Part shown: positions 9,351-63,961 of the stretch, one piece after another | How the letters are laid out: every line of letters begins with the position of its first letter | Position numbering within the stretch: the first letter of the stretch is position 1 | NCBI RefSeq assembly: GCF_963666195.1 | Contig: NZ_OY762653.1 | Span: 1,769,501-1,833,500, forward strand | Direction of reading: 5' to 3' | Origin: Trichococcus shcherbakoviae | GTDB lineage: Bacteria > Bacillota > Bacilli > Lactobacillales > Aerococcaceae | Length of the DNA stretch: 64,000 bases | The notes under the pieces: model-generated | What the model was told of the DNA's origin: nothing | Databases searched by the model: none | Seen by the model: the letters and a program-made list of their open reading frames with translations, nothing else | Position numbers and translations under genes: made by a program

Positions 9351-10061
9351 TCATAAAAACAACAAGCCGTCGAGATCTAAGATGACGATTTCGCGGTGAT
9401 TCAGTTGTTTGATGAGGTGGTGGTCCTCCAACGAACCCATCTTGCGGCTGATCGTTTCCGGAGTCGTTCCGAGGTAGGAAGCCAGATCCTTCTTCGACAT
9501 CGGCAAGGTGATGGTGTCGCCGTCCTTCGTGGCCAGTTCGGCAAGGTAGAGGGCCAAGCGGGCTTCGACTTTTTCGGTCGCCACGTAGGTCGTCTGCCGT
9601 TCCGACTTTTCCAGACGGTTGGAGAATTCCTGCAGCAATTTCAAAGAAATGGCAGGGTATTTCAACAAAAAGTGCTGTAGATCGTTCCTTTTCATCCGGC
9701 AAACTTGGGTTTCCTTCACCGCTTCGGCATAGGCTTCGTGCTTCGATTCGCTGAAGAGGGCCAACTCACCAGTGAAATCGCCAGGATTGAGGAAACGCAC
9801 GAGCTGCTCTTTTCCGGACTCGGCCAGCCGGTAAATGCGGATCAGGCCGGAATGGAGGATATAGAGTGTATCCGACGTATCATCGGGGCGGTAGAGCAGT
9901 TCGCCTTTTTTGTAGGTCGCCGGATGCGTGACGGACATGATTTCGTCCATCTGGTCCGGCTCCAAGTGATTGAAGATCGGCACCAGCGAAATGCAGGATT
10001 TGTGCGAGTTGCAGGCGCAGTCTCCGCCGCAATTGTGCGCTGGTTTATGGGTTTCGTTCAT
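9351..10061 (-). CDS. Crp/Fnr-family regulator with FNR-type cysteines
   Basis: A 236-residue regulator. Residues about 28-150 are the cyclic-nucleotide-like effector domain (YKKGELLYRPDD, GDFTGELALF), residues about 155-225 the winged helix, whose recognition helix reads LGTTPETISRKM as in FNR-type proteins. The N-terminus holds four cysteines (Cys11, 15, 17, 23), and a further cysteine lies in ETQVCRMKR at about the place of the E. coli FNR cluster ligand Cys122, so an oxygen-sensitive Fe-S cluster or a thiol switch is plausible. It lies beside the metal ATPase gene, whose promoter carries an FNR-type box (12276-12289); a second box precedes the metal-binding protein gene at 22495. Activation of both under low oxygen is inferred. 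Confidence 0.85.
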   Translation of the reverse strand: MNETHKPAHNCGGDCACNSHKSCISLVPIFNHLEPDQMDEIMSVTHPATYKKGELLYRPDDTSDTLYILHSGLIRIYRLAESGKEQLVRFLNPGDFTGELALFSESKHEAYAEAVKETQVCRMKRNDLQHFLLKYPAISLKLLQEFSNRLEKSERQTTYVATEKVEARLALYLAELATKDGDTITLPMSKKDLASYLGTTPETISRKMGSLEDHHLIKQLNHREIVILDLDGLLFL

Positions 10062-10173
10062 AGGGAAAATCCTCCGTTTCGGAATGGGACAGGCAGTCTT
10101 GGTTGCTTAAATTGTACCGCAAACCGTAGGCTGCATGCGAATTTTATCTTGGATGTGAGCTTTTTATAACGAC

Positions 10174-10360
10174 TGATGGCTAGTTTCACGGGTTAGCCCT
10201 TCGGAAAGGATAAAGGAACCCCTTGTCTCTACGAGCCAAGGATACTATTCGACTAACCTGCTGACGCAGGAAGTCTCTCAGCATATTGCGCTCTACGATG
10301 CTCAGTCGGCACGATTTCCTAAATTTCTCTCATGGCTGAACGAACCCGTTCCGCTTTTCT
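10174..10360 (-). repeat. Copy 1 of a 3'-end repeat element (187 bp)
   Basis: On the reverse strand it begins AAAAGCGGAACGGGTTCGTT, contains GACTGAGCATCG and GAGCGCAATA, and ends GGGCTAACCCGTG...CTAGCCATCA. The same outer blocks occur at 61968-62095 with a shorter middle. Inverted segments (ACGGGTT with AACCCGT, GGAAA with TTTCC) predict a long folded stem. It overlaps the end of the metal ATPase gene, whose last ~17 codons and stop lie in it. Confidence 0.8.
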
Positions 10361-12212
10361 TCCGGTTGAAGCCGATTAAACGCATAGCGTTCAGGATGAC
10401 GGCCAGGATGCTGGCTTCATGAATGAACATACCGCTGGCGAGATGGACGGAACCCATCAGCACGCCCGCCAAAAGGAAGAACACGACTCCAACCGCAATG
10501 GCGATGTTCTGTTTCATGTTGCGCATGGTCGCCTTTGAGAGCGAATAAGCATGGGAAAACTGCATCAGTTTGTCGGCCATCAGCACAACATCGGCTGTCT
10601 CCATCGAGATGTCGGTCCCGCCTTCGCCCATGGCCAAGCCGATGTCGGCTGTCGCGATGGCCGGTGCATCGTTGATGCCGTCACCGGCCATCGCCACGAC
10701 GGCGCCATCTGCCTGCAGTTGTTTGACGAAACGCACTTTGTCCTCCGGCAACAGCTCGGCATGGAAAGCGTCCAATCCCAATTGTTCGGCGACCGCTTGG
10801 GCGGTGTGGCGGTTGTCCCCCGTCAGCATAATGATCTGTTTGATGCCGTTGCGGCGCATTTCGGCCAAAGCCTGCGGTGCGTCCTCGCGGATCTGATCAG
10901 CAATGGAGAAGAGCCCGGCGAGCGTGCCGTCAATGGCCACGAAAACGACGGTATTGCCGGTTTTTTCGCGTGCAATCGCGTAGATTTCTGCTGCTTCATT
11001 TATCAAGATTCCGGACTGGACCATCAGTTTGCGGTTGCCGGCGACGAGACGTTGACCTTCAACTGTCGCTCTCAATCCGTGGCCTTTGATGACTTCCGCA
11101 TCTTTCGGCGCAACAGATATTTCCAGCCCTTGTTGATGTGCGTATTTCACGATTGTTTGTCCGAGATGGTGTTCGGAAATGCGCTCCGCCGAAGCCGTCA
11201 GCTGCAGCAGTTCGCTGCGATCGGCGCCACTGAGGACATGGATATCGGTCACTTCCGGTTTGCCTTTCGTCAGCGTGCCGGTCTTGTCGAAAACAAGTGT
11301 ATCGACTTTGGAAAAGCGATCCATGACCTCGCCACCTTTCACCAGCACGCCGTATTTGGCGCCGTTGCCGATGCCGGCCACGTTCGATACCGGAGCACCG
11401 ATCACAAGCGCACCCGGGCAGGCGATCACAAGGAAAGTGATGGCAAGATGCAGGTCGCGCGTCCAAACGTAAACGATGACGGAGAGCACCACAATCGCCG
11501 GCGTGTAGAAGTTGGCGAAGGCATCTAGGAAACGTTCGGCCTTGGATTTGGATTCCTGCGCCTCTTCGACCAATTCAATAATTTTTGCGAAAGTTGTGTC
11601 ATCGCCGACCTTTTCCGCGATCATTTCAATGAAGCCATCGTCCACCAATGTACCCGAAAAGACTTTGTCATCCAAGGATTTATTGGCCGGGATCGCTTCT
11701 CCCGTCACAGCGGCTTCGTTGATGGCCGCCTGACCCTTCACGATGATGCCGTCAACCGGAATTTTGCCGCCGGGCTTGATGAACAGCCGATCCCCGACAG
11801 CCACTTCCTCGACCGGCACAACGACTTGATCGGTGCCATGCAGGACGATCGCTTCCTGGGGCGCCATGTCGATCAACGACCGCAGAGAAGAGCGGGTCTT
11901 TTCCAAGGTGCGTGCTTCCAGGAAGTCACCGAACAGAAACAGGAAGGTGACGACGGAAGACTCCGTATATTCGCGGATGAACAGCGCACCGATGACGGCA
12001 ATCGTCACCAGCAGCTCGATGCTGAAAGCCTTCATCCGCAACGCCAGATAGGCTTTGTACATGATCGGAACCACCGCGATGAGCGTCGCGAAGATAAGCG
12101 CGAAGTCAGCAGCAGTGGTATATCCGAGGGTTTTCAAAGCAAAACCGATGACGATTAGGAAGCCTGATAGTGCGGTAATGCGGTTTTTGTATTTATTTAT
12201 CCATTTGATCAT
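10302..12212 (-). CDS. Heavy-metal-transporting P1B-type ATPase (CPG variant)
   Basis: A 636-residue membrane pump without an N-terminal metal-binding domain. Order of parts: four N-terminal helices, actuator loop with VTGEAIPANK, the membrane motif ACPGALVIGAPV (CPG where copper and zinc pumps have CPC), the phosphorylation site FDKTGTLTKG, a nucleotide domain with SEHHLGQTIV, and AGDGINDAPAIA. It should use ATP to move a transition metal out of the cell; the CPG motif makes the metal uncertain. AGAGGAGGT precedes ATG 12212. Its promoter has an FNR-type box and the FNR-like gene is its neighbour. The C-terminal tail after LIGFNRKK (SGTGSFSHERNLGNRAD) is encoded by the repeat element at 10174-10360 and is not part of the family. 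Confidence 0.9.
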   Translation of the reverse strand: MIKWINKYKNRITALSGFLIVIGFALKTLGYTTAADFALIFATLIAVVPIMYKAYLALRMKAFSIELLVTIAVIGALFIREYTESSVVTFLFLFGDFLEARTLEKTRSSLRSLIDMAPQEAIVLHGTDQVVVPVEEVAVGDRLFIKPGGKIPVDGIIVKGQAAINEAAVTGEAIPANKSLDDKVFSGTLVDDGFIEMIAEKVGDDTTFAKIIELVEEAQESKSKAERFLDAFANFYTPAIVVLSVIVYVWTRDLHLAITFLVIACPGALVIGAPVSNVAGIGNGAKYGVLVKGGEVMDRFSKVDTLVFDKTGTLTKGKPEVTDIHVLSGADRSELLQLTASAERISEHHLGQTIVKYAHQQGLEISVAPKDAEVIKGHGLRATVEGQRLVAGNRKLMVQSGILINEAAEIYAIAREKTGNTVVFVAIDGTLAGLFSIADQIREDAPQALAEMRRNGIKQIIMLTGDNRHTAQAVAEQLGLDAFHAELLPEDKVRFVKQLQADGAVVAMAGDGINDAPAIATADIGLAMGEGGTDISMETADVVLMADKLMQFSHAYSLSKATMRNMKQNIAIAVGVVFFLLAGVLMGSVHLASGMFIHEASILAVILNAMRLIGFNRKKSGTGSFSHERNLGNRAD

Positions 12213-14600: not shown

Positions 14601-16409
14601 TTATTCTACAGTAACACTCTTAGCAAGGTTGCGTGGTTTGTCAACGTCATAGCCACGTTCAAGTGTTGCGTAGTAGGCGAATAATTGTCCCGGAACAACA
14701 GCTAATAAAGGTGTTAACGCTGGATGAACGGCAGGCATTACGAATTGATCGCCTTTCTTTTCCAATCCTTCCATAGCAAAGATAAGCGTATTGGCTCCAC
14801 GGGAACGTACTTCCTCAACGTTACCCCTGGTGTGGGAAGCAACGTTTTTCTGGGTAATGATCGCAAGGACTGGTGTACCCTCTTCGATCAAAGCGATTGT
14901 GCCGTGTTTCAATTCTCCAGCCGCAAATCCTTCCGCTTGTATGTAAGAAATTTCTTTTAATTTCAGCGATGATTCCATACATACATAGTAATCCAATCCG
15001 CGACCGATATAGAAAGCATTACGGGCGCTCTGAACATAGTCTATTGCAAAGTCGTGAATGGTCTCTTTATCATTGATGATGACATCCATTGCATTAGCAA
15101 CAATGCTTAATTCGTGAGCCATGTCGATATCGGTTTGTACACCTTTTGTTTTTGCTAAAATTTCGCAAAGCATTGCTTGGACCGCGATTTGGCCAGTGTA
15201 AGCTTTTGTTGAAGCAACAGCGATTTCAGGGCCGGCATGTAACAATAAAGTATATTTTGCTTCACGTGAAAGGGTAGAACCTGGTACGTTTGTAATCGTC
15301 ACAGCAGGGAAGTTCCATTCATTTGTTTTTACAAGCACTTGGCGGCTGTCTGCTGTTTCGCCACTTTGAGAGAGGTAAATAAAGAATGGTTTACCTTGGA
15401 TTAATGGCGTATTATATGAAAACTCACTGGACAAATGCACTTCTGTAGGGATTTTAGCAATATTTTCGAACAAGGATTTGCCGACCCAACCTGCATTATA
15501 GCTTGTCCCGCAAGCTATAATATGAATGCGATCCGCTTCTGCCAATTCTTTAAGTAAAGCGGCATCAATGTTGAATCCGCCTTTGTCATCGGAATATTCT
15601 TTAACGATTTTGCGCATAACGCCGGGTTGTTCATCGATTTCTTTCAACATGTAGAATGGGTAGGTCCCTTTTTCTAAATCACTTGAATCGAGATGAGCTG
15701 TGTATGGGGCACGTTCCCTAATTGTGCCATCGAATGATTCAATCGTAACCTTGTCAGCTGTTACAATAACCAACTCACCATCATGGATTTCAACGTACTG
15801 ATTTGTCAGTTGGATCATAGCGATAGCATCACTGACGATACCGTTGAAAGTGTCGCCTTTAGCTATTAATAAAGGACTTTTATTTTTTGCGGCATATAAA
15901 GTGTTTGGAGTTTCTTTATCCATTAAAACAAACGCAAATGATCCCGTGATCACTTCAAGCGCTTTTTTGAAGGCTTCTTTTCCAGATAGATTATCTTTTT
16001 CAGCAAAATATTCGATAACAGCCACGGCAATTTCTGTGTCTGTTTGACCATTTAGAGCGACATCTTCCAAATAAGTTTCGTTCAGCTCACGATAGTTTTC
16101 GATAACCCCATTATGGACTAAAGTGAAACGTCCATTAGGGGACTGATGCGGATGAGCATTTTCAATGCTTGGTTCCCCATGGGTAGCCCATCGCGTATGG
16201 CCAATACCCTGATGAGCAAAAATGTCAAAATTTACTTTTTCTTTTAATGCAGCAATATGGCCTGTTTCTTTGAATATATGACCCTTTTTATTTTCATCAA
16301 CAACATAAATTCCCGCTGAATCATAACCGCGATATTCTAATTTTTGTAAACCGGCAACTAAAATTTCTTGTGCCTTGCCTTTTCCGATGTATCCTACGAT
16401 TCCACACAT
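14601..16409 (-). CDS. glmS: Glutamine--fructose-6-phosphate aminotransferase (isomerizing)
   Basis: A 602-residue cytoplasmic enzyme making glucosamine-6-phosphate from fructose-6-phosphate and glutamine, the first step to UDP-GlcNAc and the cell wall. The N-terminal glutaminase domain starts with the catalytic cysteine (MCGIVGYIG) and has HTRWATHG; two SIS domains follow ([19 protein letters not shown], and [13 protein letters not shown]) and the end is [11 protein letters not shown], with the conserved lysine for the sugar. The length is normal. The gene is preceded by a glmS ribozyme, so its mRNA should be cut when glucosamine-6-phosphate is abundant. It diverges from the mannitol operon. 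Confidence 0.97.
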
Positions 16410-16454
16410 ATCTAATCATCCTTTTCTTATATAAGGTAGTTTTGTGTTTTCTGG

Positions 16455-16590
16455 TGTGTGAATAGTTTTTTGTCAGCTCGCGCTGGTTGTTTTATTCTGT
16501 AGACTACACTAGCCTGAAGTCATCCGCCGAATCTTTCGATAAACTTCTTCCTCGTCACCCAAATGAAATTGGGTCTGGCGCTATCCCGAT
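16455..16590 (-). ncRNA. glmS self-cleaving ribozyme
   Basis: On the reverse strand: AGCGCCAGACCC, then TGGGTGACGAGG, GTTTATCGAAAGATTCGGCGG and ATGACTTCAGGCTAGTGTAG follow the conserved core of the glmS ribozyme (AGCGCC...TTGACGAGG...TATCGAA...CGGCGGATG...). Cleavage should fall between A at 16582 and G at 16581. The 3' limit (P3/P4 domain) is approximate. It ends about 45 bases ahead of the glmS start. Glucosamine-6-phosphate is the known cofactor. Confidence 0.93.
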
Positions 16591-16632
16591 TGATTTATAT
16601 ATCCTCCTTTTTTATTTTCAGAAAACATCATT

Positions 16633-61038: not shown

Positions 61039-61857
61039 TCACAAATACGTAACCGCAACCCCATAATGATCGGACACGCAAGGCAATTTCTTCCCGTCGA
61101 ATTTGACTTCGTACGTTTCGACCGCTTGCGGCTGGTCTGAGAAGATATAGTCGATGCGCAAGGGGACTTCGTTTCCTTCCCAGCCGTCGATTGCCGGCGG
61201 AACGGTTGCAGATCCGATTCGCGTTGCGGCGACGGCGTAGGCATCCTGCCAGCCGGCATTCGTGATCAGGTCGTAGCCTTCATTGCGGACATCGGCTGGG
61301 TTGTTGACGTCACCCATGACATAGATGGGCTTGGTGCCGCGCAGCTTTTTAACTGCAGCCTCAACGGAAGTCCACTCCCGTAGGAACGGATTTTCTTCTT
61401 CCGCTTTCCACCAAGAAAGGTGGACGGAGACGAAAGCGGCTGCTTCGGTCTCGAGGACCAAAGCGCGGCGGGTGTGGATGTTTTCGAAATCATTGACTAC
61501 AGAAAGTTGGACCTGTTCGACTGACTGAATCGGCGCTTTGCTGAGGATGGCGACTCCTTCATCGAAACGGAAGTAGCCTTGGTGGCAAGGTACCCAGGAC
61601 CAATGATAGGAAAGTCCTTTCTCCGCCAAGAACTTCACCAAGAAGTAGGCGAAGTTATCCGATTTGATCGGGATTTCGTTCTGGGTGGGCAGATAGCCCT
61701 CCGGTTCGTTGACGCTTGTGCCGCTGGAAAGCTGATTCACCTCCTGCAAAGCGATGGCGTCGTATTCGTTTTCCAGAATGTCCGTAATCAGGGCGGCGTA
61801 AGTTTCGGGGTCTGCTGTTTGGACCCAGCTGTACGTATTCAAAGTCAGTAGTTTCAT
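61039..61857 (-). CDS. Endonuclease/exonuclease/phosphatase-family protein
   Basis: A 272-residue protein with the full set of EEP motifs: LTLNTYSW at the start, LQEVNQ (metal-binding Glu), VSVHLSWW, MGDVNNPADVR, RIDYIF and SDHYGVAV at the end. Members cut phosphodiesters in DNA, RNA or lipids; the substrate cannot be read from the sequence. No signal peptide is present, so it acts in the cytoplasm. GGTGAGG precedes ATG 61857. A C-terminal remnant of a relative lies at 57241-57345. Confidence 0.88.
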   Translation of the reverse strand: MKLLTLNTYSWVQTADPETYAALITDILENEYDAIALQEVNQLSSGTSVNEPEGYLPTQNEIPIKSDNFAYFLVKFLAEKGLSYHWSWVPCHQGYFRFDEGVAILSKAPIQSVEQVQLSVVNDFENIHTRRALVLETEAAAFVSVHLSWWKAEEENPFLREWTSVEAAVKKLRGTKPIYVMGDVNNPADVRNEGYDLITNAGWQDAYAVAATRIGSATVPPAIDGWEGNEVPLRIDYIFSDQPQAVETYEVKFDGKKLPCVSDHYGVAVTYL

Positions 61858-61967
61858 GTGGTCCTCACCTTTCTAAACAAATAGGTATTAATATGATCTT
61901 TTAAAAAATAGGAAGTGCATCATTTTAGTTATTTTACAGACTTTTAAAGTGTTTCGTGCATCCAAAA

Positions 61968-62095
61968 TGATGGCTAGCTACACGGGTAAGCCCTTCGGAA
62001 ATTAGATAAATCTGTCCTATTGCGCTCTTCGATGCTCAGTCGGACAGATTTCCTAAATTTCTTTCAGGGCTGAACGAACCCGTTCCGCTTTTCCT
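61968..62095 (-). repeat. Copy 2 of the 3'-end repeat element (128 bp)
   Basis: On the reverse strand it starts at the stop codon of the PTS gene (TAGGAAAAGCGGAACGGGTT) and ends CTAGCCATCA. Inside, AAATCTGTCC pairs with GGACAGATTT, flanked by GGAAAT/ATTTCC and by GGGTT...ACCCG, so the whole can fold into one long stem. It matches 10174-10360 over both outer blocks; the middle differs. Confidence 0.8.
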
Positions 62096-63764
62096 ATCTT
62101 CCTAATAAATCTATTATATCAGATTTTAGGACATCTGCTTGGGGACCGTACACGACTTGGATGCCTTTGCCTTTGCGGATGACGCCGCGTGCACCCAATG
62201 TGGACCATTTTTTATCTTCTGCAACTTGGGTTTCATCTTTGACCGTGACGCGCAGACGGGTCATGCAAGCATCGACTTCAGTGATGTTTTCTTGTCCGCC
62301 GAATGCGTCGATGATGTTCCAAACAAGTTTGTCGTTATCGGATGCACCAGCGTTGCCTTCCGGTTTCGCAGTGGCAGGAGCAGCTTCTTCCGCTTCGCCG
62401 TCGAAGTCCGTGTAGTTGCCCAAACGGCCTGGCGTTGCGAATTTGAAGCGTTTGATCATGAAGTTGGCGACGAAGTACATGATGACAGCAAACGCGAGCG
62501 TCACCCAGATGTAGTTGACGACATCCAACCATAAGCCGGCTTTCAAGGACATCGGGATGCGTGTCAGGAATTCCAGCGTACCGAAGGAGTGGACGCGCAG
62601 GCTGATGATATCGGCCATGGCGAATGCGACTCCTTGTAGGACTGCATAAACGCCGTAAAGCAGTGGTGCAGCGAACATGAACATGTACTCAAGCGGTTCG
62701 GTTACCCCTGTCAGGAAAACAGCGATGGCTGCGGAGAAGAACATGGATTTGTATTTCGGACGTTTGTCGACATCGACGTTGCGGTACATAGCATAAGCCA
62801 AGCCCATCAAGCTGCCGGCTGCGCCGATCATTTGACCAACTTTAAAGCGGGCAGGAGTGAATGCGTTAAGCAACTCATTGTAGGCTGCTGTATCGCCGGT
62901 GTTGTTCAAGTTCACCAAATCGCTGGCCCAAGCCAACCAAAGCGGATCTTGACCGAACACTTGAGAACCTGCAGCAGCGCCTGTCAAAATGGTGTAAGTT
63001 CCACCCAAAGAAGTGTAGTTCATCGGAATCGTCAGCATATGGTGCAGACCGAACGGCAACAAGAGACGTTCCAACGTACCATATACGAAAGGCGCCAAAA
63101 TCGGTGCGGTATCCGCGGAGTCCGCGATCCAAATCCCGAAATTATTGATGCCGGTCTGAACGACTGGCCAGATGATTGCCAAAACAAGGGAAATTAGAAC
63201 GGACCAACCAATGACGACGAAAGGCACGAAGCGTTTGCCGTTGAAGAAGGACAACGCATCAGGAAGTTTGCGGTAATTGTAGTATTTGTTGAAGATGACG
63301 GCACCGACAAAACCGGCGATGATCCCAACGAAGACACCCATATTCAAAGCAGGTGCACCCAAAACGTTCGTGAAGTAGCCATTGACCAGGATATCTTGGC
63401 CGAATAACGTTTTGGTAGTCGCGCCGTCCGTAGCCAGCATATCTCCGGTTACTGCGAAAAGTTTACCGGTCGTGCGGTTGATTAGGATGAAGGCAAGCAG
63501 TGCTGCGAAGGCTCCGCCGGCACGTTCTTTTGCCCAAGATCCCCCGATGGCGACGGCGAACAGGATATGCAGGTTGACGATGACAGCCCAGCCCAGATCT
63601 TCGATAACCCCAGCCGTTGTCAGCAACAGTTGGACATCCCCCGAGAACATAGCGATCATCTTGCCGATACTGATCATCAAACCAGCTGCCGGCATGACCG
63701 CGATAACAACCATCAAAGCTTTACCGAATTTTTGCCAAAAATCAAACGTAAATATTTTCTTCAT
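62094..63764 (-). CDS. PTS maltose/glucose-type EIICB
   Basis: A 556-residue permease. Residues about 1-440 are EIIC of the glucose family (FWQKFGKALMVVIAVMPAAGLMISIGK, GTLERLLLPFGLHHMLTIPM, GVTEPLEYMFMFAAPLLYGVY); residues about 480-556 are EIIB with the cysteine in VDACMTRLRVTV. It resembles MalT of enterococci. No EIIA is fused. ATG 63764 follows GAGAGGAG; the longer frame up to 63881 is not expected. TTGCAT/TATACT (17-base spacer, about 63823-63851) form its promoter and a MalR-type operator lies behind it, which supports maltose as substrate. Glucose cannot be excluded. Confidence 0.88.
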   Translation of the reverse strand: MKKIFTFDFWQKFGKALMVVIAVMPAAGLMISIGKMIAMFSGDVQLLLTTAGVIEDLGWAVIVNLHILFAVAIGGSWAKERAGGAFAALLAFILINRTTGKLFAVTGDMLATDGATTKTLFGQDILVNGYFTNVLGAPALNMGVFVGIIAGFVGAVIFNKYYNYRKLPDALSFFNGKRFVPFVVIGWSVLISLVLAIIWPVVQTGINNFGIWIADSADTAPILAPFVYGTLERLLLPFGLHHMLTIPMNYTSLGGTYTILTGAAAGSQVFGQDPLWLAWASDLVNLNNTGDTAAYNELLNAFTPARFKVGQMIGAAGSLMGLAYAMYRNVDVDKRPKYKSMFFSAAIAVFLTGVTEPLEYMFMFAAPLLYGVYAVLQGVAFAMADIISLRVHSFGTLEFLTRIPMSLKAGLWLDVVNYIWVTLAFAVIMYFVANFMIKRFKFATPGRLGNYTDFDGEAEEAAPATAKPEGNAGASDNDKLVWNIIDAFGGQENITEVDACMTRLRVTVKDETQVAEDKKWSTLGARGVIRKGKGIQVVYGPQADVLKSDIIDLLGR

Positions 63765-63790
63765 TTTAAAACTCCTCTCAAATTTGCCAG

Positions 63791-63804
63791 TGCAATCGAT
63801 TGCA
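63791..63804. promoter_or_regulatory. MalR-type operator in front of the PTS gene
   Basis: TGCAATCGATTGCA is a perfect 14-bp palindrome sharing GCAATCG and TTGCA with the operators at 46504 and 46669. It lies between the -10 element and the start codon, where a repressor would act as a roadblock. Confidence 0.8.
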
Positions 63805-63961
63805 ACGTTTACGATTCGAAGTATAGACCATATCCAGAAATTATGCAAGCGTTCTATTTCAGAATAATTCGGTTTTTTCAACGGTTATTCAGCGAATAGA
63901 TGAAGGGAAAAACGAAAATCCCGATAAATAACGCAACGGAAATAATAATGCAACTTTTGCA

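What the first reader, a model, noticed from the sequence alone, without database searches (positions are those of the whole stretch)
10174..10360. A repeat element supplies the C-terminal tail of the metal ATPase
The element copy at 10174-10360 covers the last ~17 codons and the stop of the P1B ATPase gene (tail SGTGSFSHERNLGNRAD). In copy 2 (61968-62095) the same sequence begins right at the stop codon of the PTS gene. So the element inserted near or in a 3' end and replaced the old stop codon, lengthening a protein.
Basis: partly seen in the sequence, partly recalled or inferred. Interest (0 to 1): 0.65.

Follow-up and report, generated by a model that had tools for sequence, protein, structure and literature searches.

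The report
Mobile hairpin repeat rewrote protein's tail
A small hairpin-shaped repeat that is scattered through Trichococcus genomes jumped into the very end of a metal-pump gene, replaced its stop signal and so gave the protein a new tail of about 17 residues; the event is well supported, and events of this kind are already known from other bacteria.

Summary
Window 10173-10360 is one of about 42 copies found of a palindromic repeat in this Trichococcus chromosome, and it covers the 3' end and stop codon of the P1B-ATPase gene. Orthologues settle the interpretation. Four genomes carry the element at this site, with identical junctions and the identical tail ...FNRKKSGTGSFSHERNLGNRAD* (636 aa; 635 in one). 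Eight other Trichococcus genomes lack it and end differently. The old TAA survives beyond the element at 10144-10146. In copy 2 the element abuts the unchanged stop of the PTS gene, so nothing was lengthened there. A nearby stop is common: 93 of 169 distinct 3' ends had one within -13..+3 nt. Tail replacement is rare: besides the ATPase, one family-supported case (RNase HII). The element is a covarying hairpin with optional modules. It often follows an intrinsic terminator and itself ends in hairpin+TTTTC. A covariance model finds relatives in 29 of 398 sampled genomes of the class (own included), sometimes as ~120-bp tandem arrays; Rfam gave none. It is MITE-like and resembles EFAR of Enterococcus faecalis (recalled; homology untested). 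The mobilising enzyme is unknown.

The parts
10173..10360 (+). Copy 1 of the palindromic element (outer hairpin plus 76-bp internal module)
   Evidence: R1 model hit 10173-10360, 73.6 bits, E 2.1e-19; BLAST family
10208..10283 (+). Internal module M1, in place of the left inner arm of the short form (approximate limits)
   Evidence: Present in G000, G010 and G089, absent from G011 at the same site with the same junctions; limits from query positions
10302..12212 (-). P1B heavy-metal ATPase gene (636 aa); the stop TGA 10302-10304 lies inside the element
   Evidence: TIGR01525 E 1e-173, best stretch residues 65-612; reading frame checked
10305..10358 (-). 18 codons read from the element: K then SGTGSFSHERNLGNRAD
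10144..10146 (-). Ancestral stop codon TAA (in AGATAA), about 155 bp beyond the new stop
   Evidence: AGATAA printed; AGA-TAA ends the gene in several empty-site orthologues
10153..10173 (.). About 21 bp of unassigned sequence between the old gene end and the hairpin, the same in all four carriers
   Evidence: GTCGTTATAAAAAGCTCACAT (minus strand) in G000, G089, G010, G011
61881..61966 (+). Left module of copy 2 (diverged)
   Evidence: BLAST of the left module: 74% identity, E 4.1e-11
61967..62094 (+). Copy 2, short-form hairpin
   Evidence: R1 151.9 bits, E 8.3e-43; RNA fold -49.6 kcal/mol, z -5.88
62094..63881 (-). PTS IIBC gene; its TAG (62094-62096) abuts the element, stop unchanged
   Evidence: TIGR02003 E 2.7e-272; G001 and G008 empty sites keep the TAG
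9351..10061 (-). Crp/Fnr-type regulator gene downstream of the ATPase; the element now lies between the two genes
   Evidence: NCBIfam hits, best PRK11161 E 2.7e-25, below its cut-off

Best explanation
A non-autonomous, MITE-like palindromic element inserted into the last codons of the ATPase gene, with its 3' end (..GCTTTTC) pointing into the gene. Read antisense it is open in this frame for 18 codons and then stops, so the ribosome now reads K-SGTGSFSHERNLGNRAD-stop in place of about six native residues plus stop. The protein gains about 12 residues after its last recognised domain. Shown: one insertion with shared junctions, relatives without it, the old stop left downstream, the element dispersed and present/absent at many other loci. 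Inferred: mobilisation in trans by an unidentified enzyme that recognises stem-loop + T-tract (terminator) targets, the ATPase site being an atypical target within coding sequence; translation to the new stop; and that the tail is tolerated rather than selected.
For: Carriers and empty sites. Tail identical in 4 of 4 carriers, absent from 8 of 8 Trichococcus orthologues without the element and from one outgroup (G025). The four carriers share the far junction and two bases of the tail-coding part, CATGAG against CCTGAA in most G000 copies. Dispersed family: 40 merged places; present in 12 of 12 Trichococcus genomes and 13 of 13. Polymorphism: 22 G000 loci in 3-4 relatives, 80 orthologous stretches: 64 have no R1 match at E<=0.01 and 16 do; each of the 22 loci has at least one relative without a match, but by eye the unmatched stretches at 2592417 and 2889518, and some at other loci, hold deletion remnants. 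Clean empty sites by eye at 327287, 1084452, 28400, 542836, 2836910, 1831468, 720464, 2758430, 2626307, 675468. Terminator-like site in the 200 bp upstream, sense: 84 of 152 copies (antisense 65); downstream: 19 sense, 9 antisense; random windows 211 of 1500. T-tract 80-109 nt before the hairpin in 53 of the 84, about the length of the left module.
Against: No mobilising enzyme or autonomous partner found. No consistent target-site duplication (TTAT on both sides at 720464, not general). 68 of 152 copies have no detected terminator upstream. I see no terminator at the ATPase site, and copy 1 lacks the usual left module, so the original insertion may have been rearranged. The gene tree does not unite the four carriers (2 changes; 0% of 200 bootstrap trees with 1; few well-supported branches), so transfer of the locus between species is possible. 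No expression or proteomic data.
Confidence: 0.88

Rival explanations
1. The tail is ancestral to the ATPase family and the repeat arose from, or was copied out of, this gene end.
For: The tail is shared by four genomes of three species.
Against: Eight of eight Trichococcus orthologues without the element, and outgroup G025, lack the tail; dozens of copies lie elsewhere, and related elements occur in other genera.
Confidence: 0.02
2. The element is a functional 3'-UTR RNA (terminator, processing or stability hairpin) kept by selection at gene ends; mobility is incidental and stop-codon adjacency is the selected feature.
For: 93 of 169 distinct 3' ends have an antisense stop within -13..+3 nt. 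Pairing is strongly conserved: 98.1-98.2% of cells in Trichococcus copies, 94.9% in other genera.
Against: 64 of 80 orthologous stretches lack an R1 match, so individual copies are often not retained or not yet present. Among departures from the commonest pair G-U is rare: 0 against 17 mismatches in A1, 12 against 59 in A3; selection on RNA should favour G-U. A2 shows 29 against 49, but 27 of the 29 lie in the apical helix disturbed by inserted modules. Stop adjacency is also expected if the target is a bidirectional terminator near the stop.
Confidence: 0.2
3. The tail has been recruited: selection keeps the new C-terminus because it alters ATPase regulation or degradation.
For: The tail is identical in 4 of 4 carriers although the proteins differ by up to 4%.
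Against: The element is conserved as DNA at other loci too, so identity does not show protein-level selection. No domain covers the tail: the best family stretch ends at residue 612 of 636.
Confidence: 0.08
4. The element is mobilised by a Y1 (IS200/IS605-type) transposase, or retrohomes like a group IIC intron.
For: Y1 transposase genes in 11 of 12 Trichococcus genomes. The hairpin + T-tract target logic recalls group IIC introns (recalled).
Against: G008 (98% complete) has no Y1 match but 20 R1 matches. Six of six Y1 loci examined (L195-L200) hold no R1 match. No search for reverse transcriptases was made. No Rfam match at the element.
Confidence: 0.2

Closest known systems
EFAR of Enterococcus faecalis (Venditti et al. 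2007: abstract recalled, paper not held; named among bacterial MITEs in a passage of PMC3733652) and perhaps the same as Efa-1 of PMC2267715 (passages; the equation is my guess)
   Same: Lactobacillales; high-copy intergenic palindromic repeat; modular length variation, presence/absence between strains and stem-loop targets (all three recalled); Efa-1 is 163 bp, 65 copies, with two adjacent stem-loops
   Different: Homology not tested, no EFAR sequence at hand. Trichococcus copies have their own left module and keep the terminator hairpin beside the element, whereas EFAR is recalled to delete most of its target hairpin
Rickettsia palindromic elements and other MITEs fused into ORFs (ERIC, YPAL, NEMIS, RU-3; review PMC2229807, passages)
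   Same: Short stem-loop mobile repeat read in frame by a host gene; RU-3 sits at the C-terminal end of a putative LivJ protein
   Different: Here the stop of a conserved enzyme is replaced and orthologues show before and after; no sequence relation was tested
GTAG-tagged REPs (PMC3733652, passages)
   Same: Palindromic repeats abutting genes, said there to provide TAG stops often; here four copies complete a TAG with the element's first base, all four in frames with a Pfam match
   Different: REPs are 20-40 bp with a GTAG or CGTC tag; this hairpin is about 128-257 bp and I see no such tag at its ends
bcr1 of the Bacillus cereus group (table rows of PMC2267715; original paper not held)
   Same: Intergenic element of about 150 bp with conserved structure; title of the original paper speaks of mobile-element characteristics
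   Different: No sequence comparison made

Membership tests
MITE (non-autonomous mobile element) | Short, repeated, without a transposase gene | tested here: met
   128-257 bp hairpin forms plus ~85-bp left module, 40 merged places in G000; too short for a transposase
MITE (non-autonomous mobile element) | Filled and empty sites in close relatives | tested here: met
   64 of 80 orthologous stretches without and 16 with an R1 match; ATPase site 4 filled, 8 empty
MITE (non-autonomous mobile element) | Terminal inverted repeats shared with a parental IS | tested here: inconclusive
   The hairpin is a palindrome, but the outermost ends are not inverted repeats by eye; no parental IS found
MITE (non-autonomous mobile element) | Target-site duplication | tested here: inconclusive
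   TTAT on both sides at 720464; not consistent elsewhere
EFAR | Sequence homology to EFAR | not testable with these tools
   Paper not held; 37 of 105 genomes of another Lactobacillales family carry R1 matches, but they are unnamed
EFAR | Targets able to form stem-loops (recalled) | tested here: met
   Terminator-like site upstream in 84 of 152 copies vs 211 of 1500 random windows; a majority, not all
EFAR | Modular length variation (recalled) | tested here: met
   Forms of about 128-131, 187, 193 and 255 bp
IS200/IS605-derived element | Mobilised by a Y1 transposase, ends shared with an autonomous copy | tested here: inconclusive
   Y1 genes in 11 of 12 genomes, absent from G008; 6 of 6 Y1 loci examined without R1 match
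Any Rfam RNA family | Match to a family model | tested here: not met
   None at gathering score at either copy or in nine loci of relatives; none at E<=1 for 61850-62150
Group IIC intron derivative | Recognisable group II intron RNA | tested here: not met
   No Rfam match at E<=1 for 61850-62150; reverse transcriptase not searched

The most novel reading that the evidence does not exclude
The element belongs to a superfamily of DNA hairpins spread over a whole bacterial class (Bacilli). It inserts just after intrinsic terminators and itself ends in hairpin + TTTTC, so each copy is a fresh target; this makes tandem arrays and litters gene 3' ends. Its arms stay complementary through template-switch copying between them (G-U is no commoner than other mismatches, and one Trichococcus allele is a freshly perfected palindrome) rather than through selection on RNA. 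Occasional off-target hits, as in the ATPase, rewrite protein C-termini, and early stops in all three antisense frames keep the new tail short.
Probability: 0.35. Interest if true: 0.66.

Novelty: new member of a known kind. Interest (0 to 1): 0.45.

Why it matters
It is a clean before-and-after case of a small mobile repeat replacing the stop codon and C-terminus of a conserved enzyme. It also exposes a widespread hairpin repeat family without an Rfam match, with a target logic (terminator in, terminator-like end out) that would explain tandem arrays and clustering at gene ends. If the scarcity of G-U pairs holds up, it is a warning that covariation in mobile hairpins need not mean a functional RNA.

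Tried and rejected
Chance match: rejected (68 pieces, best non-self E 6.7e-83). Ancestral tail: rejected by orthologues.

Other genes with element-supplied ends. Of 169 distinct 3' ends, 11 had an antisense open frame of at least 100 codons with the stop more than 3 nt inside the element. Four are the ATPase in four genomes (L001, L046, L055, L354). L177 is a ribonuclease HII (PF01351, E 3e-41) whose stop lies 10 nt inside; its orthologues were not compared. The other six (L023, L263, L279, L283, L307, L351) have no Pfam match at E<=0.001 and are taken as chance frames. Six more have 1-3 stop bases in the element: L165 peptidase U32, L173 and L347 acyl-ACP thioesterase, L189 NlpA lipoprotein, L235 DegV; L183 has no Pfam match. 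The 169 include orthologous copies in different genomes, and apart from these 13 non-ATPase frames the frames were not checked to be genes.

Y1 transposase as partner: inconclusive. Left module without a hairpin as sign of an autonomous element: both G000 candidates (984585, 1281351) turned out to have a hairpin. In G080, 51 left ends stand against 44 R1 matches, of which 36 are listed; 16 left ends have no listed R1 match; left open.

Replication-strand bias: in G022 94 of 109 copies and in G080 43 of 50 point with the leading strand as judged from GC skew of fetched loci, not counting 3 and 1 copies outside the two arcs; in G000 26 of 42 (hand count). For G022 I used the 112 copies transcribed from the listing, of 142. 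I take the bias to follow from gene orientation and do not use it as evidence for single-stranded transposition.

Fold of copy 1: no better than shuffles (z -0.76), since the internal module breaks the inner stem; copy 2 folds at z -5.88.

Literature: searches listed no paper on this repeat in Trichococcus; most subscription journals are not held, so this is weak.

Full report
Setting. The window lies in a 2.93-Mb chromosome (handle G000). G089, the same species as the window, matches contigs deposited as 'Sedimentibacter sp. SX930'. Class Bacilli and order Lactobacillales are recalled for this genus.

The observation. The sequence at 10174-10360 matches 68 pieces in the genome, merged to 40 places; two further copies came through the left module. 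The ATPase frame enters the element and stops 58-59 nt inside it. Copy 2 abuts the TAG of the PTS gene.

ATPase orthologues were taken from 41 genomes plus G089. G000, G089, G010 and G011 end ...LIGFNRKKSGTGSFSHERNLGNRAD*. G001, G003, G004, G005, G006, G008, G002 and G009 have no element there and end in other tails; those of G009 and the outgroup G025 are longer and unrelated. Lengths read to the first stop are 623-625 aa for six of the eight and 633 aa for G009; G006 was read only as an open frame. G007 gave no orthologue. The insertion lies between the RK codons and AAGATAA; the old TAA remains at window 10144-10146. All four carriers share the far junction and two bases in the tail-coding part that differ from most G000 copies, so I read this as one insertion. 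G011 has the short form and the other three the form with module M1, so the inside of the element was exchanged in place (direction unknown). The gene tree has few supported branches and does not unite the carriers, so transfer between species may have moved the allele.

Why the tail has this length. Read antisense from its 3' end, the common GTTCCGC form of the element is open for 13, 9 and 18 codons in the three frames (my reading; the 13- and 18-codon tails appear). In copies with GTTCAGC one frame stops after 2-3 codons (L177, L279). Whatever frame a gene enters, translation ends within about 60 nt.

How typical is it? Of 169 distinct 3' ends in the fetched loci, 107 have an antisense open frame of at least 100 codons that ends no more than 30 nt before the element's end or inside it; 93 have the stop within -13..+3 nt, 22 exactly adjacent. 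The loci are a sample chosen by the searches, and orthologous copies count separately. Four copies complete a TAG with the element's first base, in a U32 peptidase, two orthologous-looking acyl-ACP thioesterases and an NlpA lipoprotein. Eleven of 169 have the stop more than 3 nt inside: four are the ATPase, one an RNase HII, six have no Pfam match. In G000, 22 of 40 copies have the stop of an antisense frame at -1..14 bp. So the element often lands beside a stop codon and rarely inside a gene.

The element. From 27 short-form copies: 36 pairs, 98.2% of 971 cells paired, 14 pairs with both sides changed, 82 such cells against 23.5 in shuffles. Model R1 gives 98.1% in 76 matches of other Trichococcus genomes. 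In 51 matches (34 distinct) from other genera 94.9% of cells pair, 33 of 36 pairs have both sides changed, and the covariation score is 0.697 against 0.197 shuffled. A2 and A3 are fitted to the model, and A1 was the basis of the structure. Departures from the commonest pair are mostly full Watson-Crick swaps: 82 swaps, 0 G-U, 17 mismatches in A1; 229, 29, 49 in A2, where 27 of the 29 G-U cells lie in the apical helix disturbed by inserted modules; 343, 12, 59 in A3. One G-U pair (columns 31-98 of A1) is itself conserved. This is what one expects if complementarity is kept at the DNA level or by copying one arm from the other, though no formal null model was run. One allele (locus 2023226 in G001) is a perfect 21-bp palindrome of its left arm. 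Two optional internal modules (76 and about 66 bp) and a left module of about 85 bp make up the length classes.

Where it sits. At 22 G000 loci, G001, G003 and G011, and G008 for 14, were compared (80 stretches). R1 finds no match in 64 and a match in 16; two of the 16 (L104, L149) are on the other strand or elsewhere in the stretch, and four (L085, L094, L095, L139) are much shortened copies. Clean empty sites typically read gene stop - terminator hairpin - T-tract - stop of the converging gene, with the element between T-tract and stop when filled. Exceptions: copy 2 lies between a gene start and a stop without a clear terminator; 2592417 is filled in three relatives by other forms; 2889518 carries remnants. 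Terminator-like sites: upstream sense 84 of 152, upstream antisense 65, downstream sense 19, downstream antisense 9, random windows 211 of 1500. In another genus of the family and a few further genomes, 20 copies begin (T)AGACTAGGGGATTATAAGTTCAGCC or a near variant; about 16 of the 20 follow a T-tract, two follow another copy head to tail, and TTAT or similar comes next (by eye). Head-to-tail copies are expected if the element's own hairpin + TTTTC serves as target.

Distribution. DNA search: 14 of 41 genomes, namely 12 of 12 Trichococcus (own included), G022, and one hit in G025. R1: 16 of 76 genomes of the family; G022 142, G080 44, G019 20 matches; 29 of 398 genomes and 16 of 146 genera of the class, own included (stricter filters); 37 of 105 genomes of another Lactobacillales family. 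Arrays with a period of about 120-125 bp are seen in several. E-values from R1 are rough. No match for copy 2 in plasmids or phages, for an exact pattern in viral contigs, for L227 in plasmids or L355 in plasmids or phages. Rfam: none.

What it is. It behaves as a MITE-like palindromic element. The nearest described repeat I know is EFAR of E. faecalis (recalled; paper not held): modular, polymorphic, targeting stem-loops. Passages of PMC3733652 list EFAR among MITEs and say that GTAG REPs often provide the TAG stop of flanking ORFs. Passages of PMC2229807 review MITE sequences fused in frame to genes, including RU-3 at a C-terminus. The phenomenon is therefore known; I found no description of this sequence family or of the terminator-in, terminator-out logic in the searches listed under Tried and rejected.

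What stays open. The enzyme, the insertion chemistry, the origin of the 21 bp beside copy 1, whether the tail matters to the pump, and whether the hairpin alters expression of the Crp/Fnr-type gene downstream.

Noticed in passing
G001 allele of locus 2023226 (L085): The element has become a perfect 21-bp palindrome: its right arm is an exact reverse copy of its left arm, as after template switching.
   Followed up: partly
window 10062-10301: The element separates two co-directional genes (ATPase, then a Crp/Fnr-type regulator) that lie closer together in relatives without it; expression of the second gene may be affected.
   Followed up: no
G000 locus 2592417 and its orthologues L084, L128, L150: The same gene end is filled by different forms or subfamilies of the element in different species, suggesting repeated insertion or replacement at one site.
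   Followed up: no
L179 (G080), L228 (G199) and L356 (G514), from three families of the order: Nearly identical copies of the AGACTAGGGGATTATAAGTTCAGCC subtype occur in three families, which suggests recent horizontal spread.
   Followed up: no
G467, G204, G376, G403 and others: Tandem arrays of about 120-125-bp hairpin units in other genera of the class; some relatives read AAAAGCGGA...GGAGCTAGACA (L229-L233).
   Followed up: partly
L177:702-1508: A ribonuclease HII gene (PF01351) whose stop codon lies 10 nt inside an element copy; a second candidate for an element-made protein end.
   Followed up: partly
window 16448-16593: glmS ribozyme/riboswitch on the minus strand just upstream of the 602-aa frame 14601-16409 (Rfam RF00234, 73.8 bits).
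   Followed up: no
records MUZD01000001-15: A genome deposited as Sedimentibacter sp. SX930 appears to be a Trichococcus of the window's species (contig lengths equal those of G089).
   Followed up: partly
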